A stretch of 64,000 nucleotides of DNA from the NCBI RefSeq assembly GCF_024346315.1, contig NZ_JAGQCS010000004.1, positions 124,001-188,000 on the forward strand, read 5' to 3'. This DNA comes from Cyanobium sp. ATX 6F1. Its GTDB lineage: Bacteria > Cyanobacteriota > Cyanobacteriia > PCC-6307 > Cyanobiaceae. Positions 3,386 through 32,178 of the stretch are shown piece by piece. The position numbers and the translations under genes were made by a program. Position 1 is the first letter of the stretch, and the number at the start of each line of letters is the position of its first letter. Below the pieces are notes generated by a model that did no database searches, was not told the DNA's origin, and saw only the letters and a list, made by a program, of their open reading frames with translations.

Positions 3386-4036
3386 ATGGCCCTCTTTGAT
3401 CGCAAACCCGCCCGCCGCTGGCTCCATGTCCTGCTCCTGGCGGCGGTGAGCCTTGAGGCCAGCGCTGCCCTGGCCCAGCCGAACCTGCGCAGTACGTTTC
3501 CCGGCCGTCGCATCGGTGGCGGCACCCGCGGTGAGTGCGCCGCACGGGTGCTGGCCCACCTGGTGCCCAGCGACAGCGTCTTCGCCCCCGGCCCCGCCCT
3601 GACAGTGGCTCTGCTCGAGGGACCCACGGCCAACCCCCGGCCCCTGCAGGTTCAGTTCCGGCCCCAGGGCCCTGGCGGCACGGCCGCCGGCCCCGCCGTG
3701 AAACGGGAGCTGCCGGCTGCTCCGGCGGGGATCACCCTGCTCAAGCTGGCCAGCTTCAAGGGTTCCCAGGTCTGGGAATCCACCTTCCGCTGCGATGACG
3801 GCGCTCCGCCCGCCACCAACGATCCGCTCAGCTTCGTCGAAACGGTCTCACCACCAGCCCTGAGCCTGCTCGTCACCGAAGGCTCGGCCGACGACCGCAG
3901 CATCCAGGCGGCGTTGCAGAAGCTCAAGGGCCTCTGCGGTTCCCAGTTGTCCAAGGCTCAGCTGGCCCAATCCTTCGGCCTCGAAGATGTCATCGGGGCG
4001 GATTGGCCGGCGACGCTGCCGGTGCGCTGCCCCTGA
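3386..4036 (+). CDS. DUF928-like exported protein
   Basis: The product has 216 residues with an N-terminal signal peptide (WLHVLLLAAVSLEASAALAQ). The mature protein opens with FPGRRIGGGTRGEC, the GRR.GGG.RG.C signature I associate with cyanobacterial DUF928 proteins, followed by LAHLVPSDS and a beta-rich domain. A second Cys region is TFRCDDG, and the C-terminus contains LKGLCGSQLS. DUF928 proteins are typically neighbours of CHASE2, CHAT and TPS genes in cyanobacteria, as here, but their function is unknown. The last 47 bp overlap the 3' end of the convergent CHASE2 cyclase gene. ATG 3386 is chosen for the signal peptide. Confidence 0.7.
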   Translation: MALFDRKPARRWLHVLLLAAVSLEASAALAQPNLRSTFPGRRIGGGTRGECAARVLAHLVPSDSVFAPGPALTVALLEGPTANPRPLQVQFRPQGPGGTAAGPAVKRELPAAPAGITLLKLASFKGSQVWESTFRCDDGAPPATNDPLSFVETVSPPALSLLVTEGSADDRSIQAALQKLKGLCGSQLSKAQLAQSFGLEDVIGADWPATLPVRCP

Positions 4037-5891
4037 GCTCCCAGACGTCGAGGGGTTCCGTTCGGCCCTTCACCTGCAGGCTGCCCCAGGGTTCCCAATT
4101 CATCGTGTTGGCGCCGTTCTGAAGCACCAGATCGCGCGTCACCGAGGAAACCAGCACCCGGCAGAGGCCGTTCTGACGCGCTTTCTCGGAGCTTTCCAGC
4201 CGTGAGGCGCAGTTGACCGTGTCACCGATGATCGCGTATTCCAGCCGCTCGCTGCTTCCCATCGAGCCCGCCAGCACAGCGCCGGAATGAATCCCGATGC
4301 GCATGCGCATCGGCGGCTCGCCGTCGGCGGCCAGGTCGCGGTTGAGTTGCTCCAGGCCGTGCTGGATCGCCAGGGCGGCGTCGATCGCTTCGCTCGCGTC
4401 GGCCACCTCCCCCTTGCCCAACGGTGCCCCGAACACCGCCAGGAACCCATCGCCGGTGAACTTGTTGACCATGCCGCCGCGCTCGGTGATGGCGGGGACG
4501 CAGAGGGCCATGCCGCGGTTCAGCCAGGCCAGCAGATCCGCCGGTTTGAGGCGCTCGGAAAGGGTGGTGAAATCGCAGGTGTCGGAGAAGATCACGGTGA
4601 CCGCCAGCAGGCGCCCCTCAAAGCGCCCGTCGCTGAGCAGTTCATCCCGTTGCTCCCAGAGCTGCTGGGCCACCGCCGGTGAGGTGGTCTGGCCGAGCAG
4701 CCGTTGGATCTGCTGGCGCTGTTGCTGGCTGGCGGCCCCGCGGCGCAACCAGGCCGCCCCCGCCATCAGCGTCAGGCCCGCCAGGGGCAGGGTGGTTTGC
4801 AGCCACACCCCGTTCAGCAGCAGGGCTACCGCGCCGCCCAGGCCCAGCAGCAGCACCGCCGTCACGGCGAGGATGCTGCGCCGCAGGGTGGCGAAGCTTT
4901 CCCCCAGGGCTACTCCGAGCCCCAGGCCCAGCACCAGCAGCAGCATGCCGCTCCAGCCCGGCAGGGCCCGCAGCCCAAGGGGTCGCCCGTCGGCGAGCGC
5001 CAGCAGGGCGGCGGTGCGGTTGGCATGGAGTTCCACGCCGGGCATCTGCATCTGGCGGGCCGTCAGCACGAAGCGGGTGTAAGGAACGTTGAACAGATCG
5101 CGCAGGGAGGGGGCGGTGCTGCCGATCAGCACGATCCGCCCGCGGATCTGTGCTTGGGGCACCTGCCGGTTGAGCAGCTGATCGAGGCTCCAGAGGGGAA
5201 AACTGCCCGGCCGATGGAACGCCAGCATCTGCTGGTAGCCGGCGGCATCGAGGTTGAAGTATCCGCCTGAATCGCGCTCGAGCCAACCCTCGGCGTTGGG
5301 GCTGGTGTCCAGCCGGCTGCGCAGCTCGCCGTTGCCGCGGAACACTTCTACCAGCCGCAGGGGGAGGGCCACGGTGGCGGCGTCCTGGCCGGCCACATGG
5401 AGCAGGTCCCGGCGTACCACCCCATCGGCGTCCACCACCAGGTCGTTGAAGGCCTGGCGATCGCTCGGGGTGCCCGGGATCGGGCCGATCGATTCGGCCA
5501 CATTGAAGATCGACACCAACCGCGGGTTGCTGCGTGCCTGGCGGCGCAGGCACTCCTGCTGGGGGCCGACGCCCTTGTTGCGGTAGAGATCGAAGCCGAT
5601 CGCCCGGGCGCCATCGGCGCTGAGGGTGTCGATCGCCCGGCAGAGCAGCTGGTCATCGATCGGCCAGCCGAAGCGCGAGATGTCTCCTTCGCTGATCCCG
5701 ATGAGCGTGATCGGTGTGGTGGTACCGGCGGGAGCAGGCCGCAGGTAGGTGATCAGGTCGTAGAGCAGCAGGTTGAGCGATTCACCGATGCCCGTGAAGC
5801 GCAGGGCCGCCACCAACAGCGCCGCCGCTCCGTAGGGGGCCGTCAGCAGCAGCGCCCGGCTTAAACGATTGGGTCGCGACGATCGGCCCAT
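3990..5891 (-). CDS. CHASE2-domain adenylate cyclase (class III)
   Basis: The product has 633 residues. One N-terminal membrane helix (LLLTAPYGAAALLVAAL) is followed by a large extracytoplasmic CHASE2 sensor domain (ITLIGISEGDISRFGWP, GFDLYRNKG, RGRIVLIGSTAPSLRDLF), then about three helices near residues 330-420. A C-terminal class III cyclase domain follows: metal-binding Asp in FSDTCDFT and TGDGFLAVFG, and catalytic Asn/Arg in DTVNCASRLE. The Lys of NKFTGD and the Thr of GDTVN are the pair that usually specifies ATP over GTP, so cAMP is the likely product. It begins 8 bp after the TpsB stop and should be co-transcribed with it. ATG 5891 removes an upstream extension that overlaps TpsB. Confidence 0.9.
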   Translation of the reverse strand: MGRSSRPNRLSRALLLTAPYGAAALLVAALRFTGIGESLNLLLYDLITYLRPAPAGTTTPITLIGISEGDISRFGWPIDDQLLCRAIDTLSADGARAIGFDLYRNKGVGPQQECLRRQARSNPRLVSIFNVAESIGPIPGTPSDRQAFNDLVVDADGVVRRDLLHVAGQDAATVALPLRLVEVFRGNGELRSRLDTSPNAEGWLERDSGGYFNLDAAGYQQMLAFHRPGSFPLWSLDQLLNRQVPQAQIRGRIVLIGSTAPSLRDLFNVPYTRFVLTARQMQMPGVELHANRTAALLALADGRPLGLRALPGWSGMLLLVLGLGLGVALGESFATLRRSILAVTAVLLLGLGGAVALLLNGVWLQTTLPLAGLTLMAGAAWLRRGAASQQQRQQIQRLLGQTTSPAVAQQLWEQRDELLSDGRFEGRLLAVTVIFSDTCDFTTLSERLKPADLLAWLNRGMALCVPAITERGGMVNKFTGDGFLAVFGAPLGKGEVADASEAIDAALAIQHGLEQLNRDLAADGEPPMRMRIGIHSGAVLAGSMGSSERLEYAIIGDTVNCASRLESSEKARQNGLCRVLVSSVTRDLVLQNGANTMNWEPWGSLQVKGRTEPLDVWELRGSAPAASPANPPR

Positions 5892-5899
5892 GGAGGCCC

Positions 5900-7597
5900 T
5901 CAGAACCGGTATTGCACCTTGCCGTAGAAGCCCTTGCTCAGGGTCCAGTCGGCCCATGGGCCGACGTTGGTGTTGGCGCCGAGCTGATTCACCCAGCCGG
6001 CCTCCAACGTCCACTTGTCGCCGGCCAGCCAGCGGGTGAGAACGCCGGTGGAGCCGATGTAGTCGGTGAAGTTGAGGCCCTGCAGCTTGGTGTTGATGCC
6101 GCCGTAGCCGAAGAAGGGCACCAGTTGCAAGGCGTTCTTTTTCTTCTGCCAGAAGGTCCAGACCACCTCACTGGTGCCCAGCCAGCCGTTGTCGCCGCTG
6201 ATCAGCTGACCGGGCAGGCCGCGCAGGCCCACGTCGGAGCCGAGGGTGAACTGCATCGAGGGGGTGAGCGGGTTGAAGGCCACCTGCCCCCCGGCCCGCA
6301 GGTTCAGTTGCCAGTTGGGGGCGAAACCCCAGGCCGCTGACACCAGACCCCCCAGGGCCGTGGCCTGGCCCGGGACAACGCCCACCTGGGTCAATTCGTT
6401 GATCTGCTTGTCGGGGGTGAGGGCACCGATGCCCTGCAACAGGTAGACGTTGCCACTCCAGCCCACGGAGTTGCTCAGCCCGCTGCCGCTCAGCCCCACC
6501 CGCAGGTAGCCCGTGCGCGGGGAGCGCACACTCTCGGGCAGGAAACTGGGCAGGGCCTGGCCCGAGAGGTAGGTGTCGCTGCGGTTGATGCTCAGGCCGG
6601 CGAAGGCAGCCCAGCGCTGGGTCAGGGTTTCCTTGAACACCCACTCCAGCTGCCCGAGGCCCTGGAACTGCCGGGTGCTGAAGTCGTTCGCCGGGGCGGG
6701 GAGCTCGATCAGGTTGCGGCGGCTGTAGCCGAAGGAGCCCGTGAGGTTGACCTGGTCGCTCAGCGGGTAGGTGTAGCTGGCGGATGTGATCAAGGCCCCC
6801 AGGGAGGGGTCGTTGTTGAAGTCGAGTTCGCCGTAGAGCAACAGGATGTCGCCGGGGGCGGCGAGCCCCCCCTTCACCAGGGTGGCCACGGCCCGGCCCT
6901 CGCCGGAGCCGCTGGAGCCGTCGTTGCGCAGGGAGAGGTCACCTTGGAGGGGCTGGCTGCCCAACTCCACATTCACCGTCAGTACGGCCTGGGTGGGGTC
7001 GCTGCCCAGGCGCGAGAGGTTGCTGCGGATGCTCTTGATGCCCGCCTGGCGCTGCAGCAGCCGCAGTTGGCGCTCCACCTCGGCCAGGTTGAGCACCTCG
7101 CCCTGGAGCGGCCGCAGCAGCCGGGTCACCCGGCGACTCAGCCAGGCACTCTTGGCGTTGACCCGCACCTCCACGATCTTCCCTTCCACCACCTCCAGGC
7201 GGCCGGGCGCCGGGCTGGTTTCGACGAAGACGCGGCTGTTGACGTAGCCATCGGCCACCAACCGGGCGGTGAGGCTGGCGGCGCAGGCCTTCAGACGCTC
7301 GGCTGGATCGCTGATCGCCAGGCAGGGCGCGAGGATCTTGCTCAGTTCGGCACTGGAATAGCGCTTGAAACCGCGGATTTCGGGCAGCGCCTGGCGGCTG
7401 GTGCTGGGTGCGCCGGGGCCGGTGGGAGTTGGCACGGGGGTGGCCGGGACCTCTGGCTCCACCGGCAGCCCATCAATCTTCGGGGCCGGACGGTCCCGAT
7501 CGGGTCGTTGCTCGGTGGCGCCCGGCCCCGGCAACCGTACCGGCCCCTGCTGAACTGGTGGGGCCACCAGCTGGGCCAGCAAGGGCAGAGTGAACAT
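5900..7597 (-). CDS. TpsB outer-membrane transporter, ShlB/FhaC/HecB family
   Basis: The product has 565 residues. A hydrophobic leader is followed by a Pro-rich linker and then POTRA domains (IRGFKRYSSAELSKILAP, GYVNSRVFVET, GRLEVVEGKIVEVRV). A C-terminal beta barrel ends in Phe (FYGKVQYRF), as outer-membrane proteins do. The LRGLPGQLISGDNG segment corresponds to the VRG(F/Y) loop motif of Omp85/TpsB transporters. It should secrete TpsA proteins across the outer membrane. It is the only TpsB in the window and is divergent from tpsA1, so it probably serves all three TpsA proteins. ATG 7597 or TTG 7624 could be the start; neither leader has good positive charge, so the N-terminus is uncertain. 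Confidence 0.9.
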   Translation of the reverse strand: MFTLPLLAQLVAPPVQQGPVRLPGPGATEQRPDRDRPAPKIDGLPVEPEVPATPVPTPTGPGAPSTSRQALPEIRGFKRYSSAELSKILAPCLAISDPAERLKACAASLTARLVADGYVNSRVFVETSPAPGRLEVVEGKIVEVRVNAKSAWLSRRVTRLLRPLQGEVLNLAEVERQLRLLQRQAGIKSIRSNLSRLGSDPTQAVLTVNVELGSQPLQGDLSLRNDGSSGSGEGRAVATLVKGGLAAPGDILLLYGELDFNNDPSLGALITSASYTYPLSDQVNLTGSFGYSRRNLIELPAPANDFSTRQFQGLGQLEWVFKETLTQRWAAFAGLSINRSDTYLSGQALPSFLPESVRSPRTGYLRVGLSGSGLSNSVGWSGNVYLLQGIGALTPDKQINELTQVGVVPGQATALGGLVSAAWGFAPNWQLNLRAGGQVAFNPLTPSMQFTLGSDVGLRGLPGQLISGDNGWLGTSEVVWTFWQKKKNALQLVPFFGYGGINTKLQGLNFTDYIGSTGVLTRWLAGDKWTLEAGWVNQLGANTNVGPWADWTLSKGFYGKVQYRF

Positions 7598-7881
7598 GAG
7601 AGTCGTGTAAAAGTTTATGAGCAAAACTTATCGGAGATTTGTCTGAATTTCAGCGCGACGGACCCCTTGGTTGATCGTCCCTGCACGACCCAGCGTTCCG
7701 TTGCTGGGGCGGTGGCCGCCGGATCGATGCGGGCCAAACGATTCAGGTCATTCTTTGGGCGCTGATTGAAATGGGCGCTTGAACGTCTGTTGCCCGATGA
7801 CGCCCCGAACATGTCCTCCGCTTAGTGTTTATTTCACCTGGTGTGGGTTTTGAACCCCCGCTTTTTGTTGGCGTCCTTTCC
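7598..7881. promoter_or_regulatory. Divergent promoter region between tpsB and tpsA1
   Basis: This is a 284 bp gap between divergent tpsB and tpsA1 with an AT-rich patch around 7605-7660 in an otherwise GC-rich setting. Two inverted repeats are visible. AAGTTT at 7611-7616 pairs with AAACTT at 7624-7629 across 7 bases, close to the tpsB start. CCCAGC at 7689-7694 pairs with GCTGGG at 7703-7708 across 8 bases. Either could be an operator or RNA hairpin. I could not assign a convincing -35/-10 pair. The region does not resemble the promoter segment shared by tpsA2 and tpsA3. Confidence 0.4.
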
Positions 7882-10800
7882 ATGGCGACGCGTTCCCGGA
7901 TGAAGCAATCGCATGGCCAGGGCGTCTCAGTGGCCCTGGGCCTCTCGGCCCTGCTGGCCGCTGTTCCGGTGTGCGCGGGCGAAGTGAGCGCCACCGGCGG
8001 CGTCCTGGGCCTGGGCACGGCGGTGAATGGCCAGCTGGGCGGCAGCTGCGCAGCTGGCCTGTGCCAAGTGGGCGGCGGCACGGCGGCAGGCAGCAACCTC
8101 TTTCACCGCTTTTCGGCCTTTGATACGCGCGGCGGCATCACCGGGGTGAACTTCGCCACCGGCGGCGCCAGCAATGTGTTTGTTGGTGTGACCAGCCCCC
8201 TGGGCAGCTTCATCGACAAACTTGTCTCGTTCTCTAGCCCCGGCAACCTGTTCTGGCTCTCCCCGGGCGGCATCGCCATCAGCGGCGCCGGTGGTTTCGC
8301 CAACATCCAGCAGCTGAACCTCAGCACCGCCACCGGCTGGCGGCTGAGCAACGGCGTGTTCGATGCGGCAGGCACCACCGCCGGCCAGGCGGCGTTGCTC
8401 AGCGGCGCTCCCCTGCAGGGGGCGGCGGGGCCGCTCAGCGATCCGGCCAGCCTGGCGGCGATCGGCCTGCAGAAGAACGGCGATCTGAGCCTTTCCGGCG
8501 GCCTGCTCACGGTGGATCAGAGCCTGCTGCTCGATGCCCAGGGCGGCAACGTGCTCCTGCAGGCCGCCGGGATCCAGGCGCCGGGGGGGCAGGTGGCGAT
8601 CAGTGGGGCCACGGTGGACCAAGGCGCCACATCGATTGATGTGAGTTCTGTCAGCGGACCCGGCGGCCGGATCACGATTACGGGCGGCGCGGTGCTCCAG
8701 ACCGCGGCTCTCAACGCCAGCGGCAGCAGCGGTGGCGAGGTGACCCTGCAGGCGAACCAGCTGCTCAGTGCGGCGCCGATCCAGGCCATCGGCAGCCAGG
8801 GCTCTGGGGGCCGCATCACCAGCGCCAGCACCGCCTCCACGGTGCAGACCCTCAGCGGCCTGTGGGATGTCAGCGGACTCTCGGCGGGGGGCTCGATCAC
8901 CCTCAGCGCCGGCACCGAACTGTTCAGCTCCGGCAGCTACCTCGCCCAGGGCACCGGTGGAGCGGCCCAGGGCGGTCGTATCGATCTGCTCGCCTCCACG
9001 ATCACCCTGGCTGCGGCCCAACTCGATGCCTCCGGCGTCGGCGGCGGCGGCCAGGTGCACGTGGGCGGCGGCTTCCAGGGGGCCGACCTCGGCCTGGGCG
9101 CGAATGCCCGCAAGGTCACGGTGACCCCCGGCACCGGCCTCCGGGCCGATGCCACGGCCCTGGGGAATGGCGGTCAGGTGGTGGTCTGGTCGGAAGATGC
9201 CACTCGGTTTGCTGGCGCCGTCAGCGCCAAGGGAGGCGCCTTGGGAGGGAACGGCGGTGTGCTGGAGGTGTCGGGCAAGGCCGATCTGTTCTTCGGTGGC
9301 ACGGCCGACGCCTCAGCTCCCGCCGGCAGCCCCGGCAGCCTGCTGCTCGATCCCAAGAACATCTACATCGAGAACACCACGGTCGGGGGCTACGGCTACG
9401 ACGCGCAGAACATCGTCTACCCCGGCTCCGATGCAGCCGGTCCGACGGCGCTGGTGGAGCAGCTGGGCACGGCGGCCACTAGCCCGATCCTGGTGAACGT
9501 GCCCACGGGCGGCCTCCCCGGCCAGGAGGGGGTCACCTACCTGTTCGATGGCAGCACCTACGGCCTGCTGAGCGCGCTCTATGGCACCGATGCGATCAGC
9601 AGCCAGAAGGCGAACTACTCCCCGTCGGGTGTCTCAGCGGGATTGCTGGCGCTGATCAGCCCCGGCTGGAACAACGGGGCGACGCTCGATGCCGGGGCGG
9701 CCACCTGGATCAACACCGCCACGGGCAAATTCGCCAATGGCACCACCAGCGGTGTCATTGGCAGCGGCAACTCCTTGCTGGGCAGCACCACGGGTGATTT
9801 CAACCAGGCCTCGGTGCGCTTCCTGACTTCCGGCCAAGCCCTGGTGTTCACCCCCCGCTGGGACAACGGAGCCAGCGTCGATGCCGGCGGTCTCACCTGG
9901 CTGAGTGGCAGCACCGGCAAGCTCGCCGATGCCAGCACGGGCGGAGCGATTGGCATTGGCAACTCCCTTCTGAACACGGCCTCGGCGGCCTATCTGCCAC
10001 AGGCGGGCTGCACCGGTTGCAGTTCCTACGTGAATCAAACCGTGCGCGAGTACGGCGGCGGAAATCTGTTGATCTACAGCGGCGCCTGGGCCAATGGCGC
10101 CGTGCCGAATGCGGGGGCACTCACCTGGTTGAACGGCACAACGGGCGCCCTGGCCAACGGCGCCACCGGTGGCGTGATCGACGCGGGCAACTCTCTTGTG
10201 GGCTCCAGTGCGGGGGATCTCAATCCCTTCGGTGGTCTGGTTCCCAACACCTATGACCCTAACTACTTCTTTCAGCAGGGAGGGACGAACCTCGTCTACG
10301 ACCAGACGGCCGCGGCCGCCCCGCTGGCCCTGTTCCGCTTCACCACCTGGGACAACACCGCCACAGGAGCCACCGACGCCGGCGCCCTCACCTGGATTGA
10401 TGTGGCCACCGGCAAGCTCGGCAATGGAGCGGCCGCTGTCGGAGCGATCGGAGCGGCCAATTCCCTGGTGGGGAGCTCCACGAACGATCGGGTCGGCTCC
10501 TCTTACCAGCAATTGGGGTACTACTCCAGCACCTCCCGGGATTATTTCGTCTTCCTCAATCCCACCTGGGATGCCAGTGCCACCGCCGCCGACGCCGGTG
10601 CCCTCACCTGGATCCGCGGCAGCACCGGACGACTCGCTACGAACGCCCCGATCATCGGCACCTTGGACGCCAGCAACTCCTTGGTGGGCATCACGGCCGG
10701 CGACCGGGTGGGTGGATCCTACGAAGGCATCACAACTGGTTATTACTCTTCGACCATCACCAACCTCTGGCTCACCACCGGTGGTTGGGACAATGGTGCG

Positions 10801-18691: not shown

Positions 18692-18748
18692 GTGGCGAGT
18701 TCGGTGGGCCAACTTAAGGTTGGATCTAGCTGATCAGGCGGTTCGCCC

Positions 18749-20608: not shown

Positions 20609-20630
20609 GCGCTGATCGGGGATCCCCAAC

Positions 20631-22634: not shown

Positions 22635-23499
22635 GGTCCGTCAGGGTGTCAAGGGTGGGCCCCAGGGCCCGCTGCAGGCTGTCATCGACGGCCACCCGCA
22701 GCCCATCCGCCGTTGGTTGCGTGGGATCGCCCCCGGGCAGCCAGCTGTGGCGGGCCCAGAACGATTCGAGGCTCCTCAGCTCCTCCAATCGCGCGATCAT
22801 CTGGTGTTGCCAGTTGTACCAGGGAGCCATGCCGTCGGCGATCGTGCGGCGGCCCATCGCCGCCTTGCGCGCCAGCCGCCCGCGGCTGAGCAGGGGCAGG
22901 TGGGCGCACCTCAGGTGCTGGCGGTGGGCGAACAGGCTCTGGGCGCGGATGGATGGGCGCAGTTCGTGGGCGCCGGCCGCGAGCCAGGCCGAGGCGGTGT
23001 TGCGGAAGATCACCTTGCCACCGAACGGCAGGCGGAAATAGTTGAACGAACCCGCGATGATCGCTTCCACCAGACGTGGATCCAGCGAGGGTGAGAAGGG
23101 TTGATCCGGCAGGGAGCGCACCTGAAGAACGCGGTAGTGATTGAGGTTGGTCTCATCAAAATCCGACGTGGAAAGCCAGTTTTCCACCTGGTAATGCAGG
23201 GCGTTGATGGTGTCGGGCAGGCTTTCAATCAGCTCCCGTAGCCCTGACGGAGCGATCAGAATTTCATCGGCATCAAAGGGGTAGAACCACTCGGGAGCGG
23301 AGGCCTGGGCCACCTCCACCAGGGCGTTCATGAACGCCTCTTCGATGAAAGCTTCCTCCTCGAAGCGCACCACATGGATTCGTGCACCCAACGGCGACGC
23401 CTGCAAGGCCGCCAGGCCAGTGGCGGTGCCATCGCTGCTGCCGTGGTCGAGCACATAGGCCACATCAACGTGGTGCTGGAGGGCGTACACCAGCGCCAC
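22471..23499 (-). CDS. GT2-like glycosyltransferase; true start probably upstream
   Basis: The frame gives 342 residues from GTG 23499. It has the GT-A features HGSSDGTATGL (nucleotide-sugar region) and WFYPFDADEILI with the metal-binding DAD, then FRLPFGGKVIFRN and HRQHLRCAHLPLLSRGR, typical of large-cyanobacterial GT2_4-type enzymes. The frame stays open upstream to a TAA at 23575-23577 and encodes PRIIGLLKVKNEWPLAAV, the expected first beta strand of the fold, but with no ATG, GTG or TTG there. The start is therefore either a rare ATT/ATC codon near 23539-23544 or the gene is 5'-truncated. It overlaps the GT41 gene tail-to-tail by 164 bp. A damaged copy lies at 31955-32178. Confidence 0.75.
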   Translation of the reverse strand: MALVYALQHHVDVAYVLDHGSSDGTATGLAALQASPLGARIHVVRFEEEAFIEEAFMNALVEVAQASAPEWFYPFDADEILIAPSGLRELIESLPDTINALHYQVENWLSTSDFDETNLNHYRVLQVRSLPDQPFSPSLDPRLVEAIIAGSFNYFRLPFGGKVIFRNTASAWLAAGAHELRPSIRAQSLFAHRQHLRCAHLPLLSRGRLARKAAMGRRTIADGMAPWYNWQHQMIARLEELRSLESFWARHSWLPGGDPTQPTADGLRVAVDDSLQRALGPTLDTLTDLRLDLSERCAAGAPADAPLSLPADLYRLALRACAPHNARTPGHGPPPAAGATLP

Positions 23500-23758: not shown

Positions 23759-26700
23759 ATGGCGCTGCGTCATGCCATCGGTCTTTGGGCGCTAATCCTG
23801 GCTGGAGCGCCTGCCATGGCGGGCGAAGTGAGCGCCAGCGGCGGCGCCCTGGGCCTGGGCACCGCGGTGAACGGCCAGCTGGGCGGCAGCTGCGCATCGG
23901 GCCTCTGCCAGGTGGGCGGCGGCACGGCGGCGGGCCGTAACCTTTTTCACCGCTTTTCCGCCTTCGACACGCGCGGCGGCATCACGGGGGTGAATTTCTC
24001 CACCGGCGGCGCCCAAAACGTGTTCGTTGGGGTGACGAGCCCCCTGGGCAGCTTCATCGACAAACTTGTCTCGTTCTCTAGCCCCGGCAACCTGTTCTGG
24101 CTCTCCCCGGGCGGCATCGCCATCAGCGGCGCCGGCGGTTTCGCCAACATCCAGCAGCTGAACCTGAGCACCGCCACCGGCTGGCGCGTGGGCAACGGTG
24201 TATTCGATGCGGCGGGCACCACAGCCGGCCAGGCGGCCCTGCTCAGCGGCACACCGGGCCTAGGGGCGGCTGGTGCCCTCACCGATCCGGCCAGCCTGGC
24301 GGCGCTCGGCCTGCAGAAGAACGGCGATCTGAGCCTTTCAGACGGCCTGCTCACCGTCGATCAGAGCCTGCTGCTCGATGCCCAGGGCGGCAACGTGCTG
24401 CTGCAGGCGGCCGGGATCCAGGCGCCCGGGGCCCAGGTGGCGATCACCGGGGCCTCGGTTTCACTGCAATCCAGCACGGTGGATGTGAGCGGCTCCAGCG
24501 GCGGCGGCACGGTGCGCCTGGGCGGTGGCCTGCTGGGAGCCGATCCCACGATCACCAACGCCCAACGCACGAGCGTGGATGGGGCCAGCGCGGTCCGCGC
24601 CGATGCCACGGCCCAGGGTTCGGGCGGCACCGTGGTGGTCTACGGCACCGACAGCATCAAGGTGGAAGGCGCCCTCTCGGCCCGCGGGGGCCCCCAGGGC
24701 GGCGATGGCGGCCTGGTGGAAACCTCCAGCCGCGGCGAGCTGGTGGTGAACCAGGCGCCGGACGCTTCCGCCCCGAAGGGCCAAGGCGGCACGTGGCTGA
24801 TCGATCCCAACAACGTCACGATCCAGGCAACGGGGCCCGACAGCAACGTCACCGCCCCGCCGGCCGTGATCACCACCGGCGACAGCGCGGTGCTCACCAC
24901 CAGCACCCTTGAGACCGCGCTCAATGCCGGCACCAACGTGAGTGTGGTGACCAGCGCCGGCGGCACCCAGGCGGGCGACATCACCGTGGCCTCACCGATC
25001 AGCAAAACGGCGGGGGGTAACGCCACGCTCACGCTCACGGCCTACAACAACATCAACCTCAACGCGAACATCAGCAGCAGCGTTGGACAGCTGAATCTCA
25101 CGCTCAACCCCGACAGTGATGCCAGTGGCGGTGGGACCACCAGCCTGGCTACTGGTGCCACCCTCGCCCTCAATGGCGGCACGGCGGCCTTCAACGGCAG
25201 CACTTCCTTGGCGGGCACGATCAGCGGCAGCACGATCACCGGGTCAGAGATTGCCTCAAGTAACGCAACGCTGAGCAACATCACGTTCGGCTCGAATCTG
25301 TCGACCACAGGGGGGTTGAATCTTTCTGGAACGATCGGGCTGGCCAATGGAATCACGTTGAACAAAGGCATCAGCAGCGACTGGTATGCAGCCCCGGGCA
25401 CGCAGTTAACGACTGGCGGGACTGCTGTGATCAACAGCAGCGGCGGTAACATCATTGCGGGCAATGGCGGTCCTGGAACGTTCGGAATCGGCAGCGGCGT
25501 GACGCTGCAGGGCTATGGCACGTTGACGACCAACTCATCGGCAACGCTGAACAACCAGGGCACGATTCGTGCCTCCACGGCTGGGCAGGTGTTCTCGATT
25601 AAACCAACGACGCTGAACAACACGGGTACCATTGCTACCACCTTGGGAAGTATCGGGATCTTCCCCACCAATCCCTTCTCCAATGCTGGTGTTCTAGAGA
25701 TCGGCCCGAACACCAGCATCAGCGCGAAAAGCTTCACCAATGCGGCGGGCGGCATCATCCGCGGCGGTTTAGGTCTGGCGCAGGGGAGCCTCTTACTCCA
25801 AGGCGATAGTACTTCTCCTTCTGCTACTCTCACCAACCTCGGCACCATCAGCCCCGGAGGCGATGGCGTCGCGGGCTGGCTGACCCTGTCTGGGGGCGAC
25901 CTTGTCCTGGGCAGCACCTCAGTCCTTAATCTCGAAATTGGCGGGCCCATTAATGGCAGCCAATTCGACTGGATAACAGTTAGTGGCAACGTGAGCCTCG
26001 GTGGCACGATCAACACCCAACTTATCAATGGTTTTAGCCCAAGCCTTGGCCAGAGCTTCGATGTGATCTCAAACGACCCATTAACGGTCACAGGCAGCTT
26101 TGCTACCTCGAATCTGCCCTCGGGGTTCAACGGCGCGATCGTGGGCAGCGTCTACCGCCTCACCAACTCAGGTCTGAGCTGTCTTGGCATTTGCTGGGAT
26201 GGCGGTGACGGCACCACCGCCTGGGAAAACCCGGCGAATTGGACAAGTGATCAGTTGCCCACCACCAGCGATGTGGCCTACCTGAACCTGGTGGCTGGTG
26301 TCGATGTGACCCTCTCCAGCAGCCAGAGCATCAAGGGGTTGAACAGCAACGCCGGCAACAACCTCACGATCAATCCTGGTGGCACGTTGACGCTGAATGA
26401 TCCAGGAACAAGCTCGCTATTGGATGGTGGGCTGACCATCAGTGGTGGCACGTTGACCACCAAAGGAGCCTTAACACTGAACGGATCCTCGGTGTGGGCC
26501 GGCGGCACCCTTGATGGAACGGGAACGCTGACGGTGTCTCCAGCGGCCAAATTGGTGGTGAACGGCGGCGGCACCTATGGCTTGAGCCAACTGACGAATC
26601 AGGGGATAGTGCAATGGACGAGCGGCAATGTTGATTTTAGTGCAAATGGAGTGATCACTAACTCACTTTTGTTCGACGTGCAGACCGATAGCATCTGGGG

Positions 26701-29700
26701 CAACAAAGGCTTGTTCGCGATTGAGTTCAATAACCTGAACGGAATACTGCGCAAGAGTGCTGGTACGGGTACTGCGACCTTGGGAGCAGGGGGCAATCGA
26801 GTGAATCTGACGAACCGCGGATCAGTGGAGGTGAGCGCGGGAACGCTGGCGATCAGCCCTGCGTCGGCAATGCAGAACAATGGCATAATCGAAATTGCAT
26901 CGGGAGCAACTTTCCAGGTTGCTTCAGGAGGCCTCACCAACAACGGCATTCTTTCGGGCTTTGGCACCATTGATGTGGGCGCCGGCAATACGCTCACCAA
27001 CCTCTTGTTCATCTACCCCGGCAGCGCTAGCACTAGTACTGCGGGAACCCTGAGTCTCATCGGCGACCTAGCTCTGGGCGGGGCCTCCGTGCTCAACCTC
27101 GACCTGGGCGGTGCCACACCCGGTAGCCAATACGACCGGCTAGCGGTTTCGGGCAACGTGAGCCTTGGTGGCACGATCAACACCCAGCTGATCAATGCCT
27201 ACGCCCCTAGCCCCGGTCAAAGCTTCGATGTGATCACATCCGGCGGAACGGCCACCGGCAGCTTTGCCAGCTCGAATCTGCCTTCGGGTGTCAACGGGGC
27301 GATCGTGGGCAGCGTCTACCGCCTCACCAACTCCGGCCTGAGCTGCCTGGGCGTCTGCTGGGATGGCGGTGGCGGCACCACCGGCTGGGAAACCCTGGCG
27401 AATTGGACAAGCGATAAGTTGCCCACCACCACCGATGTGGCCTACCTGAATCTGGTAGCTGGTGTCGATGTGACCCTCTCCAGCAGCCAGAGCATCAAGG
27501 GGTTGAACAGCATCTCCGGCAACAGCCTCACGATCAATTCCGGGGGGGCGTTGACGCTGAACGATCCAGGAACGGCCTCCAACCTTGCTGGCAATCTCAC
27601 GGTCAGTGGCACCCTGAACATTCAATCGCCCCTCAGCGCATCGTCGTTGGCCCTCAGTGGCGGAGCGTTGGCCGGCAGCGGCAGCCTCACGGTTTCTAAT
27701 GCCTTCTCGCGTACGGGCGGAACTACGGGCACCACCCTCACCGGGGTCACGCTCAACCAGGCCAGCGGTGATCTCAGCCCGGGCGCCTGGACCGTTAATG
27801 GACCGGTGTCGTTTACGGCGGCGGCAGGAAACCTGCTCGTCGATGGACCCGTGACGGCCACCACCCTGCTGGGCCGCGGTGCCACAGGGCTGACGCTGCA
27901 GCCCGGTGTCGTGCTGAACGCCACGGCAAGCACGGGGAGTGCCTTGGTGCTCGATGCCGGCACGGGCGCCTTCACCAACCTGGCCGGCGCCGGGGCGCTA
28001 GCGGTGGCACCAGGGGCGCGCTGGTTGGTCTATTCCGCCAGCCCCCTCACCGACAACCGCGGCGGCTTGAGCTATGCCTTCAAGCAATACGGCATCACTT
28101 ACGGCAGCGCGAGCCCTGTATTGGGCGCCGGCAATGGCTTCCTCTACAGCGCCACGCCAACGGTCACGGCCAGCCTCACCGGCAGCATCAGCAAGACCTA
28201 CGACGGCACCGTGGCCGCCCCGATCGCCGCTGGCAACTATCTCGTCAGTGGCGCGATCGATGGCGACACCGTACAGGTGAACAATTCCACGCTCGGCACG
28301 TACACAACGGCCGGGACCGGGGGGCGTGGTGCGAAGGATGTTGGCAGTGGAAAGGATGTCTCCGTTTCTGGGGTGACGATTTCCGGCGCCAGCGAGGGTG
28401 CGGTTGCGGTGTATGGCTACCAGTTGGCCAGCTCAACAGCGAGCGGTACCGCCCTGGGCACGATCAATCCGCTCGCGCTCGCCGGTGCCGCGATTGCGCC
28501 CTCCAGTTCCATCTACGGCGCGGCCCTCAGCCCCGGTGCAGTCAGCTTCTCCAATCTCTTCTCCGGCGATCTCGTCGGTTCTGCCACCTCCGTCAATACC
28601 TCAACCCTCAGCACCGGCGGCACCCCCATCGTTGGTACCTACACCCAAACGGCCAGCGCCACCCTCAGCGGTAGCGATGCGGCGAACTACAGCTTCTCAG
28701 GCTTCACATCAACTCCCAACTACACGATCAATCCCCTCAGCCTCTCGGTCACGGGCGTTACCCCCCTCAGCAAGACCTACGACGGCACCACTCAGGCCAC
28801 CCTCAACAATACCGCCGCCGCCGTGTCAGGCCTCTTAGGCACCGACGGTGTGACGCTTAACGGCCTAACCGCAACCGGTCAATTCGCCGATCCCAACGCC
28901 GGCCTGGCCAAGCCCGTTGCCGTCTCCGGCTTCGTGATCAGTGGCCCCGATGCGGCCAATTACACCCTTCTTCAGCCGGGCGGCCTGACCGCCGACATCA
29001 CCATCCGCCCCCTCGGCACCTGGAGCGCCTCCACCCCTGGCAACTGGAGCGATGCGGCCAACTGGGATGTCCTGCCCAGTGGCTCTAACGTGGCCGTCGT
29101 GGTGATCCCCGTGGGTAGCGGCGCCCTCACTTACGACGCCGCCGCCGGTAGCACCAACCTGCAGAGCCTCATCATCGACCAGAGCCTCAGCATCACCGGT
29201 GGTTCCCTGGCGGTGAGCGGTGCGACATCCGTGGCCAGCGGCGCCAGCTTGAGTCTCAGTGGTGGCAATTTTTCGACCACCTCCCTGAGCAACCAGGGGC
29301 TGGTGAACGGCAGCAGTCCGCTCGTGGTGAATGGCTCCTACACCGAGAGCGGCGGCAGTCTCGGTAGCGGTTTCTCCAGCGTTGCGATCACCCAGGCCAG
29401 CGGCGACCTCAACCTCAGCAGCGTGGGATCCACGGGCCCGGTGAGCCTGACCAGCAGCGCTGGCGCCCTCAACCTCAGCGGCGCTGTGAGCTCAGCCGGT
29501 GGGCCCATCAACCTGATCGCCACCGGCGCCACGGATCTTTCCTCCACCGCGTCGCTCATCAGCCCCGGCGCTCTGATCTCCGTGAGCAGCGGCGGTCCGC
29601 TGAGCCTGAACGGCGCTCGCATCGATGCCAGCGGAGCCAGTGCCGCCGGCACGGTGCAGCTCGATGGCAGCAGCATCACCCTCACCAACGCCACGGTGAA

Positions 29701-30520
29701 CACTTCTGGTGCCAGCGAAGGTGGTTCGATTCAGCTGGGCCTGAAATCCCTGCCCAGTAGCGTTACGCTCACCAACTCCAGCCTGGTGGCGGATCCCCCT
29801 GGTCTTGGCGGTTCCATCTCCATCGACGGCCTTGCCATCGCCTTGGTTGGCTCCACCTTGAACGTGGTGGGCTTGAGCGGCGGTTCCATCCTGCTGGGTT
29901 CTGCCAATACCGCCACCTTGAGCCTCGATGCTGCCACCTCTCTCGTGGGCGGTGGTGATGGCACCTTCAGCCTGTTCGGCGGTTCGATTCTCAACAACGC
30001 CAGCATCATCGGTGGCCGGTTGTTTTTGAATGGGGTGGGATTGGGCGCTGTGAGTGTGTTGCCTAATCTGCCCTTGAGCGCTGTTTTGTCCCCCATCGTC
30101 GCGCTGCCCTCTGAGGTGGCGTTCCAGCTCAGCGTCGATCTCGGTCAGAGCTCTCCGCTCTCCAGCGTTGATTACACGGCGCCGGGTTCGTTGCTGGTCG
30201 CCCAGTGGGAGCAGCTGGGGATCGATCCGCTTTCTATCACCCTCACGGAATCGGCCTTCCTCTATGCCAATTTCTTATTGAATGAAGGTCTTTCAACCAG
30301 TGGTCTGTGGACGTTCGATCCATCCGTGCAGCAGCTCACCCCCTCACAGGTGGAAGAGCAGTTCACCGCTTCCGAGCAGCGAGCGATGGAAGCAACGGCG
30401 GCGAAACTAGGTCTTGACCCCACTGACGGCCTATTGGCGCCTACTCCTGCTCAATTGCAGGCGAGCCTGCAGAAGGTGATCAAAGCTGTGCGCGGGCGGA
30501 TCCGAGGAGGTCAGCCATGA
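23759..30520 (+). CDS. TpsA2: giant TPS exoprotein with YDG/MBG modules
   Basis: The product has 2253 residues. The signal peptide is MALRHAIGLWALILAGAPAMA. Its TPS domain (about 25-175) is almost identical to that of TpsA1 and TpsA3. In order there follow a GGDGGLVETSSRGEL / WLIDPNNVTI segment, beta-helix-like filler, two WDGG/NW modules (about 784-880 and 1177-1267; SGLSCLG.CWDGG, LPTT.DVAYLNLV), a YDG module (about 1470), one MBG-like module (about 1574-1659), a second YDG module (SKTYDGTTQATL, about 1660), and a WSASTPGNWSDAANW module. The C-terminal tail reads PSQVEEQFTASEQRAMEATA then LQKVIKAVRGRIRGG. YDG and MBG modules are known from large bacterial adhesins. Its TGA overlaps the ATG of chat2 (ATGA), implying translational coupling. 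Confidence 0.9.
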   Translation: MALRHAIGLWALILAGAPAMAGEVSASGGALGLGTAVNGQLGGSCASGLCQVGGGTAAGRNLFHRFSAFDTRGGITGVNFSTGGAQNVFVGVTSPLGSFIDKLVSFSSPGNLFWLSPGGIAISGAGGFANIQQLNLSTATGWRVGNGVFDAAGTTAGQAALLSGTPGLGAAGALTDPASLAALGLQKNGDLSLSDGLLTVDQSLLLDAQGGNVLLQAAGIQAPGAQVAITGASVSLQSSTVDVSGSSGGGTVRLGGGLLGADPTITNAQRTSVDGASAVRADATAQGSGGTVVVYGTDSIKVEGALSARGGPQGGDGGLVETSSRGELVVNQAPDASAPKGQGGTWLIDPNNVTIQATGPDSNVTAPPAVITTGDSAVLTTSTLETALNAGTNVSVVTSAGGTQAGDITVASPISKTAGGNATLTLTAYNNINLNANISSSVGQLNLTLNPDSDASGGGTTSLATGATLALNGGTAAFNGSTSLAGTISGSTITGSEIASSNATLSNITFGSNLSTTGGLNLSGTIGLANGITLNKGISSDWYAAPGTQLTTGGTAVINSSGGNIIAGNGGPGTFGIGSGVTLQGYGTLTTNSSATLNNQGTIRASTAGQVFSIKPTTLNNTGTIATTLGSIGIFPTNPFSNAGVLEIGPNTSISAKSFTNAAGGIIRGGLGLAQGSLLLQGDSTSPSATLTNLGTISPGGDGVAGWLTLSGGDLVLGSTSVLNLEIGGPINGSQFDWITVSGNVSLGGTINTQLINGFSPSLGQSFDVISNDPLTVTGSFATSNLPSGFNGAIVGSVYRLTNSGLSCLGICWDGGDGTTAWENPANWTSDQLPTTSDVAYLNLVAGVDVTLSSSQSIKGLNSNAGNNLTINPGGTLTLNDPGTSSLLDGGLTISGGTLTTKGALTLNGSSVWAGGTLDGTGTLTVSPAAKLVVNGGGTYGLSQLTNQGIVQWTSGNVDFSANGVITNSLLFDVQTDSIWGNKGLFAIEFNNLNGILRKSAGTGTATLGAGGNRVNLTNRGSVEVSAGTLAISPASAMQNNGIIEIASGATFQVASGGLTNNGILSGFGTIDVGAGNTLTNLLFIYPGSASTSTAGTLSLIGDLALGGASVLNLDLGGATPGSQYDRLAVSGNVSLGGTINTQLINAYAPSPGQSFDVITSGGTATGSFASSNLPSGVNGAIVGSVYRLTNSGLSCLGVCWDGGGGTTGWETLANWTSDKLPTTTDVAYLNLVAGVDVTLSSSQSIKGLNSISGNSLTINSGGALTLNDPGTASNLAGNLTVSGTLNIQSPLSASSLALSGGALAGSGSLTVSNAFSRTGGTTGTTLTGVTLNQASGDLSPGAWTVNGPVSFTAAAGNLLVDGPVTATTLLGRGATGLTLQPGVVLNATASTGSALVLDAGTGAFTNLAGAGALAVAPGARWLVYSASPLTDNRGGLSYAFKQYGITYGSASPVLGAGNGFLYSATPTVTASLTGSISKTYDGTVAAPIAAGNYLVSGAIDGDTVQVNNSTLGTYTTAGTGGRGAKDVGSGKDVSVSGVTISGASEGAVAVYGYQLASSTASGTALGTINPLALAGAAIAPSSSIYGAALSPGAVSFSNLFSGDLVGSATSVNTSTLSTGGTPIVGTYTQTASATLSGSDAANYSFSGFTSTPNYTINPLSLSVTGVTPLSKTYDGTTQATLNNTAAAVSGLLGTDGVTLNGLTATGQFADPNAGLAKPVAVSGFVISGPDAANYTLLQPGGLTADITIRPLGTWSASTPGNWSDAANWDVLPSGSNVAVVVIPVGSGALTYDAAAGSTNLQSLIIDQSLSITGGSLAVSGATSVASGASLSLSGGNFSTTSLSNQGLVNGSSPLVVNGSYTESGGSLGSGFSSVAITQASGDLNLSSVGSTGPVSLTSSAGALNLSGAVSSAGGPINLIATGATDLSSTASLISPGALISVSSGGPLSLNGARIDASGASAAGTVQLDGSSITLTNATVNTSGASEGGSIQLGLKSLPSSVTLTNSSLVADPPGLGGSISIDGLAIALVGSTLNVVGLSGGSILLGSANTATLSLDAATSLVGGGDGTFSLFGGSILNNASIIGGRLFLNGVGLGAVSVLPNLPLSAVLSPIVALPSEVAFQLSVDLGQSSPLSSVDYTAPGSLLVAQWEQLGIDPLSITLTESAFLYANFLLNEGLSTSGLWTFDPSVQQLTPSQVEEQFTASEQRAMEATAAKLGLDPTDGLLAPTPAQLQASLQKVIKAVRGRIRGGQP

Positions 30521-31797
30521 TCCGGCCAGCACGTCATTGGCCGAGCCGTTACCTGGTGGCCTCGCTGCCGTTGTTCCTCGGTCTCCCTGTAACGACACCA
30601 GTTGCCTTGGCGGCTCCGCCAGCCGCCGCTGTGCAGCTGGCGCGCGCTTCCGATGGTGCTTCCCCCTTCAATCCGGCCCTCTACAACCCGGCGATCCTGC
30701 GCATCGGCTTCAGCGAAGCCAAGGGCAAGTCCGCCAATCCCGAGGCCGATTCCTTCCTCGACATCACCTTGGTGCCACCCGATGGGGATGTGCATGGTGC
30801 CCGCAGTGAGGTTTCGCTCAAGAGCTTCAACGAGCTGCTGCGCAAGCTCTATGGCCAACTGGCGAGTCAATCGCCGCTGGATGTCAACGATCCGAACTCA
30901 CCGGCTCGGCAGCTGTATTCGATTCTGATCCAGCCGATTGCCGCGCAGCTGCAAAAGCACAAGATCACCACGCTGCTGATCTCCGCCGATGCGGGGCTGC
31001 AGGCTGTGCCGTTCGCGGCCCTCCACGACGGCCAGAGCTACCTGGGTGAGCGCTACGGCCTCGGCATGACGCCGGCCCTGGGGCTCACCAAGCTGGCAGT
31101 GCTGCCCGAGAAAGCCCAACCACAACTGCTGGCGGCCGGGGCCTCCGAGTTCGTGGGCCTCAATGCCCTGCCTCTGGTGCCCCAGGAGCTCGACCGGGTG
31201 GGCAAGGGCAGGGCGAACCAGAGCTTCCTCAACAGGAGCTTTACGCCCCAAGTGCTGCTCCAGAAGGCGGGCGATCCACTGATCGATCGGGTGCACATCG
31301 CCACCCACGCCGAATTCCTGCCCGGCGGGCCAGCGGCGGCTCGCCTGTACTCAGGCACCGGTCCGATGTCCCTGCGTCAGTTATCCCAGCTGCGCCAACG
31401 CCGCGGTGAGGGTCAGCTGGATGTGTTCAGCCTCAGCGCCTGCCGCACCGCCCTCGGTGATGCCGACAGCGAACTGGGTTTCGCGGGGTTGGCGCTCCAG
31501 GCGGGCTCCCGCAGTGCGATCGGCAGCCTCTGGTACATCGACGATGTGGCCACTTCGGCGCTGTTCGTGCAGTTCTACCGCTACCTGGACCAGGGCCTTC
31601 CCAAGGCCGAGGCGCTGCAATTCACCCGGCGCGCCATGGCGAACGGCCGGATGCGGCTCGTGGGCGACCAGGTGATCGGGGCCGGGGGCGATGTGCTCCT
31701 CTCCAAACTGACCACGTCCCAGCAACGTCGCATCAGCACAGGTCTGCAGCACCCCTTCTTCTGGGCGGGCATCCAGTTGCTGGGAACGCCTTGGTGA
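30517..31797 (+). CDS. Exported CHAT-domain caspase-like protein (CHAT2)
   Basis: The product has 426 residues and is a paralogue of CHAT1 along its whole length. A signal peptide (LVASLPLFLGLPVTTPVALAA) is followed by the N-terminal domain (YNPAILRIGFSEAKG, FLDITLVPPDGD, LLRKLYGQLASQSPLDVNDP) and the CHAT domain (ITTLLISADAGLQAVPFAAL). The dyad is intact: His264 in HIATHAEF and Cys309 in LSACRTALGDADSE. It ends with FFWAGIQLLGTPW. The start ATG 30517 overlaps the tpsA2 stop by 4 bp, so synthesis of both products is coupled. The target is unknown; a cis-encoded TpsA is the simplest guess. Unlike the chat1 locus, what follows is gene debris, not an intact HD-GYP gene. Confidence 0.88.
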   Translation: MIRPARHWPSRYLVASLPLFLGLPVTTPVALAAPPAAAVQLARASDGASPFNPALYNPAILRIGFSEAKGKSANPEADSFLDITLVPPDGDVHGARSEVSLKSFNELLRKLYGQLASQSPLDVNDPNSPARQLYSILIQPIAAQLQKHKITTLLISADAGLQAVPFAALHDGQSYLGERYGLGMTPALGLTKLAVLPEKAQPQLLAAGASEFVGLNALPLVPQELDRVGKGRANQSFLNRSFTPQVLLQKAGDPLIDRVHIATHAEFLPGGPAAARLYSGTGPMSLRQLSQLRQRRGEGQLDVFSLSACRTALGDADSELGFAGLALQAGSRSAIGSLWYIDDVATSALFVQFYRYLDQGLPKAEALQFTRRAMANGRMRLVGDQVIGAGGDVLLSKLTTSQQRRISTGLQHPFFWAGIQLLGTPW

Positions 31798-31892
31798 TTA
31801 GCGATTCTGGCCGTCCTTCCCCTTGCCCTGGGGATGGCTGATCCTGCGTTTATCCAGATGAGATATTCGGCATTGCACAACGCCTGAGTAGA

Positions 31893-31945
31893 CCTGAGCG
31901 GCTGTCGGACAAGACCCTGGTGGAGATCATGAACAACGTGCTGGA
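31893..31945 (+). pseudogene. Remnant of the 5' end of the GAF/HD-GYP gene
   Basis: The stretch GTCGGACAAGACCCTGGTGG continues into GAGATCATGAAC and matches 18785-18840 in the intact HD-GYP gene (SDKTLVEIMN here, SDQTLVEILN there). It lies at the same position relative to chat2 as the intact gene does relative to chat1, so homology by duplication is the best explanation. Everything downstream of about codon 30 is missing, and the sequence runs directly into a GT2 remnant on the other strand. Confidence 0.7.
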
Positions 31946-31954
31946 ACTCCACAC

Positions 31955-32178
31955 CCAGCCCTCGCGCAGCGATCAGAACTACATCGGCATCGAAGCGATA
32001 GAGCCAGTCAGGTGCGGAGGCCAGCGGCGGTGCCATCGCTGCTGCCGTGGTCGAGCACATAGGCCACATCAACGTGGTGCTGGAGGGCGTGCACCAGGGC
32101 CACCGCCGCCAGGGGCCACTCGTTTTTGACCTTCAGCAGGCCAATGATGCGCGGCGCTGGGGAGATGGCTTGAAACCG
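31955..32178 (-). pseudogene. Remnant of the GT2-like glycosyltransferase gene
   Basis: Read on the minus strand this encodes PRIIGLLKVKNEWPLAAV, then VDVAYVLDHGSSDGTAAGL, then after an internal deletion and frame change APDWLYRFDADVVLIAARGL. The matching parts of the gene at 22471-23574 read VDVAYVLDHGSSDGTATGL and APEWFYPFDADEILIAPSGL. About 50 codons between the two blocks are gone and the rest of the gene is absent, so it cannot make an enzyme. As in the intact copy, the frame is closed by a TAA (32179-32181) without an ATG before the conserved region. Confidence 0.8.

What the first reader, a model, noticed from the sequence alone, without database searches (positions are those of the whole stretch)
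3386..32178. A TPS adhesin-CHAT protease-glycosyltransferase-second messenger locus
Within one stretch are TpsB with a CHASE2 adenylate cyclase, a DUF928-like protein, TpsA1 with CHAT1, an HD-GYP phosphodiesterase, a GT41 enzyme and a GT2-like enzyme, then TpsA2 with CHAT2. Sequence shows the families and close spacing. Known: cyanobacteria often carry TPS, CHAT, CHASE2 and DUF928 genes together, but I know of no characterised pathway joining them. I infer a surface-adhesion system in which the adhesin is exported by TpsB, glycosylated by GT41 and processed by CHAT, with cAMP and c-di-GMP enzymes tuning expression or release.
Basis: partly seen in the sequence, partly recalled or inferred. Interest (0 to 1): 0.82.

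Follow-up and report, generated by a model that had tools for sequence, protein, structure and literature searches.

The report
Adhesin secretion locus with built-in protease
This cyanobacterial locus makes giant secreted surface proteins, each paired with a caspase/separase-like protease that most relatives carry as the tail of the same protein, so cyanobacteria probably cut or release these surface proteins themselves, a widespread arrangement for which I found no description.

Summary
The genes are there, with corrections. The link is strong: in 151 genomes of the same family, TPS-type CHAT and TpsB occur together in 30 and apart in only 4 (odds ratio 877). In most relatives TpsA and CHAT are one polypeptide (33 fused, 12 split); 17 of 20 sampled complete genomes from other cyanobacterial families carry TPS and CHAT domains in one ORF. 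In this window CHAT is split off, and all 12 split CHATs carry a predicted signal peptide, placing CHAT in the envelope. Predicted structures match TPS domains (HMW1, FHA; Z 21.5) and Craspase/separase proteases (Z 23-24). Best reading: CHAT is the periplasmic maturation or anchor/release protease of TPS exoproteins, acting near the conserved TpsA tail (inferred). CHASE2-cyclase and the DUF928-like protein are regular partners; HD-GYP is a linked accessory (8 of 8 genomes that hold both). GT41 glycosylation is not supported: GT41 is SPINDLY/OGT-like and near CHAT in only two genomes. No paper on TPS-CHAT was found in the open library.

The parts
5900..7624 (-). TpsB outer-membrane transporter (ShlB/FhaC/CdiB type with POTRA); the only strong one in the genome
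   Evidence: PF03865 3e-14, PF08479; CdiB 6wim 9e-12; single strong copy
3990..5891 (-). CHASE2-class III adenylate cyclase, same strand as TpsB; start placed at the internal ATG, just past the TpsB stop
   Evidence: PF05226 1e-48, PF00211 4e-21; a cyclase of this type near 23 of 28 related loci
3386..4036 (+). small secreted protein with four invariant cysteines, remote DUF928-like
   Evidence: no PF06051 hit; hhalign 88% vs a DUF928 alignment; conserved in 22 of 28 loci; cysteines in alignment A2
7825..17409 (+). TpsA1: TPS secretion domain, about 26 DUF5650 repeats, C-terminal tail
   Evidence: PF18888, 26 stretches; N-domain in structural alignment A4
17215..17406 (+). conserved C-terminal tail of TpsA1 (approximate limits)
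   Evidence: tail alignment
17414..18691 (+). CHAT1, predicted signal peptide MAPLIRPLISLVLLALVAPNGPARSA then CHAT with His-Cys dyad; 4-bp gap after the TpsA1 stop
   Evidence: PF12770 3e-47; signal peptide; junction
18749..20608 (+). GAF-HD-GYP phosphodiesterase-like protein; accessory, linked in 8 of 8 genomes that hold both
   Evidence: PF13487 3e-44; linkage
20631..22634 (+). TPR-GT41, SPINDLY/OGT type; probably not part of the system
   Evidence: SPINDLY 1e-84; 3 of 41 loci
22471..23499 (-). GT2-like glycosyltransferase (Glyco_tranf_2_4); not conserved with the locus
23759..30520 (+). TpsA2: TPS domain, YDG repeats, tail
   Evidence: PF18657; N-domain model Z 21-22 to HMW1/FHA/HxuA
30326..30517 (+). 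conserved C-terminal tail of TpsA2 (approximate limits)
30517..31797 (+). CHAT2, predicted signal peptide then CHAT; start ATG overlaps the TpsA2 stop (ATGA)
   Evidence: PF12770 1e-52; model pLDDT 84, Z 24.4 to Csx29 and 22.8 to separase; junction
32286..43229 (+).
1470..2951 (-). MscS-type channel with C-terminal cyclic-nucleotide-binding domain; candidate cAMP effector, near 8 of 28 loci
   Evidence: PF00924, PF00027

Best explanation
The locus is a two-partner secretion system whose exoproteins come with a dedicated separase-like cysteine protease (CHAT). Shown by sequence and predicted structure: TpsB, TpsA proteins with a true TPS secretion domain, and CHAT proteases with an intact His-Cys dyad. 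Most relatives carry CHAT as the C-terminal domain of the same TpsA polypeptide; the window has the split form, with each CHAT carrying its own predicted Sec signal peptide and abutting or overlapping its TpsA gene. Inferred: TpsA crosses the outer membrane through TpsB N-end first, while its C-terminal tail, and CHAT in the fused form, stays in the periplasm. CHAT folds there and acts as anchor and maturation protease, cutting near the conserved tail so that the exoprotein is trimmed or released from the cell. More weakly inferred: the CHASE2 sensor and the DUF928-like protein, which face the same compartment, report envelope or adhesin state; the cyclase passes this on as cAMP (c-di-GMP in relatives where the neighbour is CHASE2-GGDEF-EAL), possibly to the nearby cNMP-binding channel. 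GT41 is not part of it.
For: Co-occurrence of TPS-type CHAT and TpsB in 151 genomes: 30 both, 2 CHAT only, 2 TpsB only, 117 neither. TpsA-CHAT fusion in 33 of 45 CHATs and in 17 of 20 complete genomes from other cyanobacterial families, with PF05860 and PF12770 in one ORF in those scanned with Pfam (also L110 and L001). The fused/split state changes at least 4 times on the tree, 6 by parsimony, with fused outgroups; all 12 split CHATs keep a predicted signal peptide. A conserved tail precedes CHAT in fused proteins and ends TpsA in split ones. His and Cys motifs intact in 45 of 45. Folds: CHAT2 vs Csx29 Z 24.4, separase 22.8, gingipain R 18.7; TpsA2 N-domain vs HMW1 21.6, FHA 21.5, HxuA 21.1. 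Core neighbours TpsB 23, CHASE2-cyclase 23, DUF928-like 22 of 28 loci of at least 17 kb, including small-genome Prochlorococcus loci with no arginine decarboxylase gene alongside, so shared synteny alone does not explain it. A second unlinked TpsA-CHAT pair in this genome has no GT or HD-GYP near it. Precedents: HMW1/HxuA C-terminal periplasmic anchors and CdrA tail cleavage by LapG (PMC5422565); FhaB prodomain processing (PMC8263021).
Against: No protease activity or cleavage site is shown here or in papers found. The signal peptide calls come from a simple hydrophobicity rule, not SignalP, and two of the 12 (L106, L120) rely on GTG or TTG starts. Whether CHAT in the fused form stays in the periplasm or reaches the surface is not shown. 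TpsA3 has the tail but no CHAT of its own (it could share one). In L165 and L168 a CHAT with signal peptide persists with no TPS gene beside it, so CHAT may have other substrates. The cyclase link could be partly shared chromosomal position (arginine decarboxylase neighbourhood).
Confidence: 0.5

Rival explanations
1. CHAT is a surface or extracellular protease displayed on a TPS stalk, acting on foreign or neighbouring proteins (gingipain-like), and the TPS part is only its carrier.
For: Fused at the C-terminus of exported proteins in most relatives; fold also matches secreted gingipain R, Z 18.7; CHAT with signal peptide survives alone in L165 and L168.
Against: Split CHATs have a signal peptide but no TPS domain, so they should stop in the periplasm; repeated splits would destroy display on a stalk; the TpsA tail is kept after splitting.
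Confidence: 0.2
2. CHAT is a contact-delivered effector, like the C-terminal toxin of CdiA, with the DUF928-like protein as immunity factor.
For: C-terminal position in a TPS exoprotein; caspase-like domains are known as toxin or release domains in polymorphic toxins (PMC3482391); a small secreted protein follows directly in the Prochlorococcus loci.
Against: The C-terminal domain is conserved, not swapped, while the middle varies; split CHATs could no longer be delivered by TpsA; the T5SS row in PMC3482391 lists HINT, not caspase; DUF928-like is absent beside the unlinked TpsA4-CHAT3 pair.
Confidence: 0.1
3. One reading: TpsA glycosylated by GT41, with cAMP and c-di-GMP both tuning it.
For: CHAT1, HD-GYP and GT41 are tightly spaced on one strand (gaps of 57 and 22 bp); HD-GYP linked in 8 of 8 genomes that hold both; G069 also has GT41 after HD-GYP.
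Against: GT41 near 3 of 41 CHAT loci, SPINDLY/OGT-like rather than HMW1C-like, missing from the G107 locus, from TpsA4-CHAT3 and from G001 next to CHAT1.
Confidence: 0.05
4. Only TpsB-TpsA-CHAT is functional; cyclase, DUF928-like, HD-GYP and channel are neighbours by shared chromosomal position.
For: The locus often sits beside arginine decarboxylase and further CHASE2 cyclases; 10 genomes have a strong CHASE2 protein without CHAT.
Against: The four-gene core recurs in Prochlorococcus and other small-genome loci without arginine decarboxylase alongside (L002, L005-L008, L100, L122); DUF928 lies near TPS-CHAT in distant cyanobacteria more often than expected, 7 of 144 vs 1.2, a lower bound; CHASE2-GGDEF-EAL is divergent to TPS-CHAT in L162 and L163.
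Confidence: 0.2

Closest known systems
CdrA/CdrB with LapG-LapD (Pseudomonas aeruginosa)
   Same: TPS adhesin whose periplasmic C-terminal tail is cut by a periplasmic cysteine protease under second-messenger control (PMC5422565)
   Different: LapG is a transglutaminase-like protease encoded apart and used on other adhesins (own knowledge); here the protease is a CHAT (separase-like) domain, usually fused to the adhesin itself, with CHASE2-cyclase rather than LapD
FhaB/FhaC with DegP, CtpA and SphB1 (Bordetella)
   Same: TPS exoprotein with C-terminal part processed by regulated proteolysis (PMC8263021)
   Different: proteases are general or unlinked; here dedicated, linked and often fused
HMW1A/HMW1B/HMW1C (Haemophilus influenzae)
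   Same: TPS secretion domain fold (Z 21.6); a GT41 enzyme in the neighbourhood
   Different: the GT41 here is SPINDLY/OGT-like and not conserved with the locus; HMW1 has no CHAT
Craspase TPR-CHAT (Csx29) and separase
   Same: CHAT fold and His-Cys dyad (Z 24.4 and 22.8); both cut a dedicated partner
   Different: cytoplasmic or nuclear and regulated by RNA or securin; here predicted exported, with no TPR part
CdiA/CdiB and polymorphic toxins
   Same: TPS export with a C-terminal catalytic domain (PMC3482391)
   Different: here the C-terminal domain is conserved and the middle is variable; no swapping toxin tips

Membership tests
Two-partner secretion (TpsA) | N-terminal TPS secretion domain with right-handed beta-helix fold | tested here: met
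   TpsA2 N-domain model pLDDT 96.4, Z 21.6 HMW1, 21.5 FHA, 21.1 HxuA; sequence models alone miss it or are weak (TIGR01901 E 0.0097)
Two-partner secretion (TpsB) | POTRA + ShlB-type barrel transporter encoded nearby | tested here: met
   PF03865 3e-14, PF08479; CdiB structure hit
CHAT protease (clan CD) | CHAT fold with His and Cys catalytic motifs | tested here: met
   PF12770; Z 24.4 Csx29; motifs in 45 of 45
CHAT protease (clan CD) | proteolytic activity | not testable with these tools
   needs purified protein
DUF928 (PF06051) | match above Pfam cut-off | tested here: not met
   no hit at E 10 in own genome, no hit in the window gene and four relatives; remote similarity only
HMW-type adhesin glycosylation system | HMW1C-like GT41 linked to TpsA/TpsB | tested here: not met
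   SPINDLY 1e-84 vs HMW1C-like 2e-4; 3 of 41 loci
CdiA-type contact-dependent toxin | variable C-terminal toxin tip with cognate immunity gene | tested here: not met
   C-terminal CHAT conserved, middle variable; split CHATs with own signal peptide
CdrA/LapG-type release | periplasmic protease cutting the TpsA C-terminal tail | not testable with these tools
   tail and predicted periplasmic CHAT present; cleavage not tested
Class III adenylate cyclase with CHASE2 | CHASE2 domain plus cyclase domain | tested here: met
   PF05226 1e-48, PF00211 4e-21; substrate specificity read from sequence only

The most novel reading that the evidence does not exclude
A large family of cyanobacterial TPS adhesins carries its own separase-like release switch: CHAT folds in the periplasm as C-terminal plug and cuts the adhesin free on a signal, and the CHASE2 cyclase and DUF928-like protein in the same compartment turn that event into a cAMP or c-di-GMP signal.
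Probability: 0.3. Interest if true: 0.8.

Novelty: new variant of a known kind. Interest (0 to 1): 0.6.

Why it matters
A homologue of this CHAT is present in 158 of 194 sampled genomes of the class, and TPS-CHAT fusions are common among those examined, often several copies per genome, yet I found no paper describing the combination in the open library. If right, cyanobacteria, including Prochlorococcus, use a caspase/separase-like protease not for cell death or CRISPR but to mature or shed giant surface proteins, with a linked second-messenger enzyme. The split and fused forms make the question directly testable in culturable strains with one active-site mutant.

Tried and rejected
Pfam and NCBIfam alone missed the TPS domain in the window's own TpsA proteins, resolved by structure prediction. 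PF06051 did not recognise the DUF928-like gene. Six paper searches for CHAT with TPS/hemagglutinin terms, or TPS with Prochlorococcus, found nothing on TPS-CHAT; subscription papers and protein-architecture databases were not covered, so 'undescribed' means not found here. A first regular expression for the His motif was wrong and was corrected. Profile search of PDB sequences with CHAT found no relative by sequence. Considered and set aside: frameshift or assembly error as cause of the split (rejected because every split CHAT begins with a predicted signal peptide, and fused and split states recur across the tree). The tree shows at least 4 changes of state; that fused is ancestral rests on three outgroup rows and on class-level prevalence, not on a rooted test.
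Full report
What is there. The window is from a 2.96 Mb, GC-rich picocyanobacterium (G000:C4:124001-188000); its closest named relatives by CHAT2 are Synechococcus, Vulcanococcus and Prochlorococcus. On the minus strand lie TpsB (5900-7624) and, directly after it, a CHASE2-class III cyclase (3990-5891). The residues read from the sequence, FSD, NKFTGDG and IGDTVN...R, suit an adenylate cyclase (family knowledge). A small secreted protein (3386-4036 +) runs convergent to the cyclase. On the plus strand lie TpsA1 (7825-17409), CHAT1 (17414-18691), GAF-HD-GYP (18749-20608), TPR-GT41 (20631-22634), then TpsA2 (23759-30520), CHAT2 (30517-31797) and a third TpsA (32286-43229). A GT2-like gene (22471-23499) is on the minus strand.

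The TPS assignment needed structure. Pfam's TPS model did not hit the window's TpsA proteins, and TIGR01901 hit TpsA2 only at E 0.0097. An alignment of 25 N-domains from related loci (A4) gave a model with pLDDT 96.4, which matches the secretion domains of HMW1 (Z 21.6), FHA (21.5) and HxuA (21.1). Two relatives in the same family (L110, L001) also pass PF05860 directly.

CHAT is an intact separase-like protease by fold. The CHAT2 model (pLDDT 84) matches Csx29 of Craspase (Z 24.4), separase (22.8) and gingipain R (18.7) over nearly its whole length. The His and Cys motifs are kept in 45 of 45 sequences of the set. Activity was not tested.

TpsA and CHAT belong together. In 151 genomes of the family, TPS-type CHAT and TpsB occur together in 30, CHAT alone in 2, TpsB alone in 2, neither in 117 (Fisher p 6e-27; shared ancestry is not removed). 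In most relatives they are one ORF with TPS domain at the N-end and CHAT at the extreme C-end: 33 fused and 12 split in the set used for the tree. Outside the family, 17 of 20 sampled complete genomes have TPS and CHAT in one ORF, and 158 of 194 genomes have a CHAT of this kind. The tree needs 6 changes between fused and split, at least 4 forced by well-supported branches, with fused outgroups.

Splitting keeps CHAT in the envelope. All 12 split CHATs begin with a positively charged, then hydrophobic stretch some 45-75 residues before the CHAT core (simple rule, not SignalP; L106 and L120 only with GTG or TTG starts). In the window CHAT2's ATG overlaps the TpsA2 stop, and CHAT1 starts 4 bp after TpsA1. 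A split CHAT has a signal peptide but no TPS domain, so it should end in the periplasm. That is the main reason to place CHAT action there in the fused form too, where secretion runs N-end first and the C-end is last. The segment just before CHAT in fused proteins is the same conserved tail that ends TpsA in split loci, a natural candidate for the cut site or docking site; this step is inferred.

Partners. Among 28 loci of at least 17 kb, TpsB is present in 23, the CHASE2 cyclase in 23 and the DUF928-like gene in 22. For G062 and G054, TpsB (and in G054 the cyclase) lies just outside the stretch. Prochlorococcus and other small-genome loci keep these genes without the arginine decarboxylase neighbour seen elsewhere, so shared position is not the whole explanation. 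In distant cyanobacteria the gene divergent to TPS-CHAT is twice a CHASE2-GGDEF-EAL protein, which hints that the sensor is kept while the messenger changes. The DUF928-like protein has four invariant cysteines and a remote match to DUF928.

HD-GYP and GT41. The HD-GYP orthologue occurs in 12 of 151 genomes as a near full-length match; 8 of these also have TPS-CHAT, and in all 8 it lies within 5 kb of the locus, in different positions. It is an accessory. GT41 is different: within 20 kb of 3 of 41 CHAT loci, two being in this window, closest to SPINDLY, and missing from G107's locus and from the second TpsA-CHAT pair of this genome. I reject the glycosylation step as part of the system.

Mechanism and rivals. 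I favour CHAT as the periplasmic anchor/maturation protease of TPS exoproteins (0.5). Precedents with other proteases are CdrA-LapG and the HMW1/HxuA anchors (PMC5422565) and the FhaB prodomain (PMC8263021). A surface protease on a stalk (0.2) and a delivered effector (0.1) remain. The stand-alone CHATs at the accD-hemC site in L165 and L168, where L166, L167 and L174 have fusions, show that CHAT can persist without its passenger (gene names at that site are read by eye) and warn against assuming TpsA is its only substrate.

Novelty. TPS export and CHAT proteases are known separately, and domain databases may list the combination, but I found no description of it. I rate it a new variant of a known kind, interest 0.6.

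Noticed in passing
window 46577-51144: Two further CHASE2-cyclases flanking a FecR protein, a cluster repeated beside arginine decarboxylase in relatives (L112, L133).
   Followed up: partly
window 1470-2951: MscS-type channel with cyclic-nucleotide-binding domain; similar genes near 8 of 28 related loci, a possible cAMP effector.
   Followed up: partly
L057 5842-15428 (G000:C11): Second, unlinked TpsA-CHAT pair in the same genome (CHAT 91% to CHAT2) with no TpsB, cyclase or glycosyltransferase nearby.
   Followed up: yes
L165 11683-13302 and L168 12053-13534: CHAT with signal peptide alone at a site where relatives L166, L167 and L174 have a TPS-CHAT fusion: the passenger seems to have been lost.
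   Followed up: partly
L179 17046-19406: CHAT-CHASE2 fusion protein of 786 aa.
   Followed up: no
L162 6149-8854 and L163 6121-8754: CHASE2-GGDEF-EAL protein divergent to a TPS-CHAT fusion gene.
   Followed up: partly
window 7825-17409: TpsA1 passenger is about 26 DUF5650 repeats of roughly 70 aa, also found with YDG repeats in the fused 3679-aa protein of L118.
   Followed up: no
alignment A4, window 23822-24721: Two nearly invariant cysteines (GSCxxGxC) near the start of the TPS domain in this family.
   Followed up: no
L034 8672-12831: A Rhodobacteraceae contig with CHAT fragments next to a CHASE2-type cyclase.
   Followed up: no
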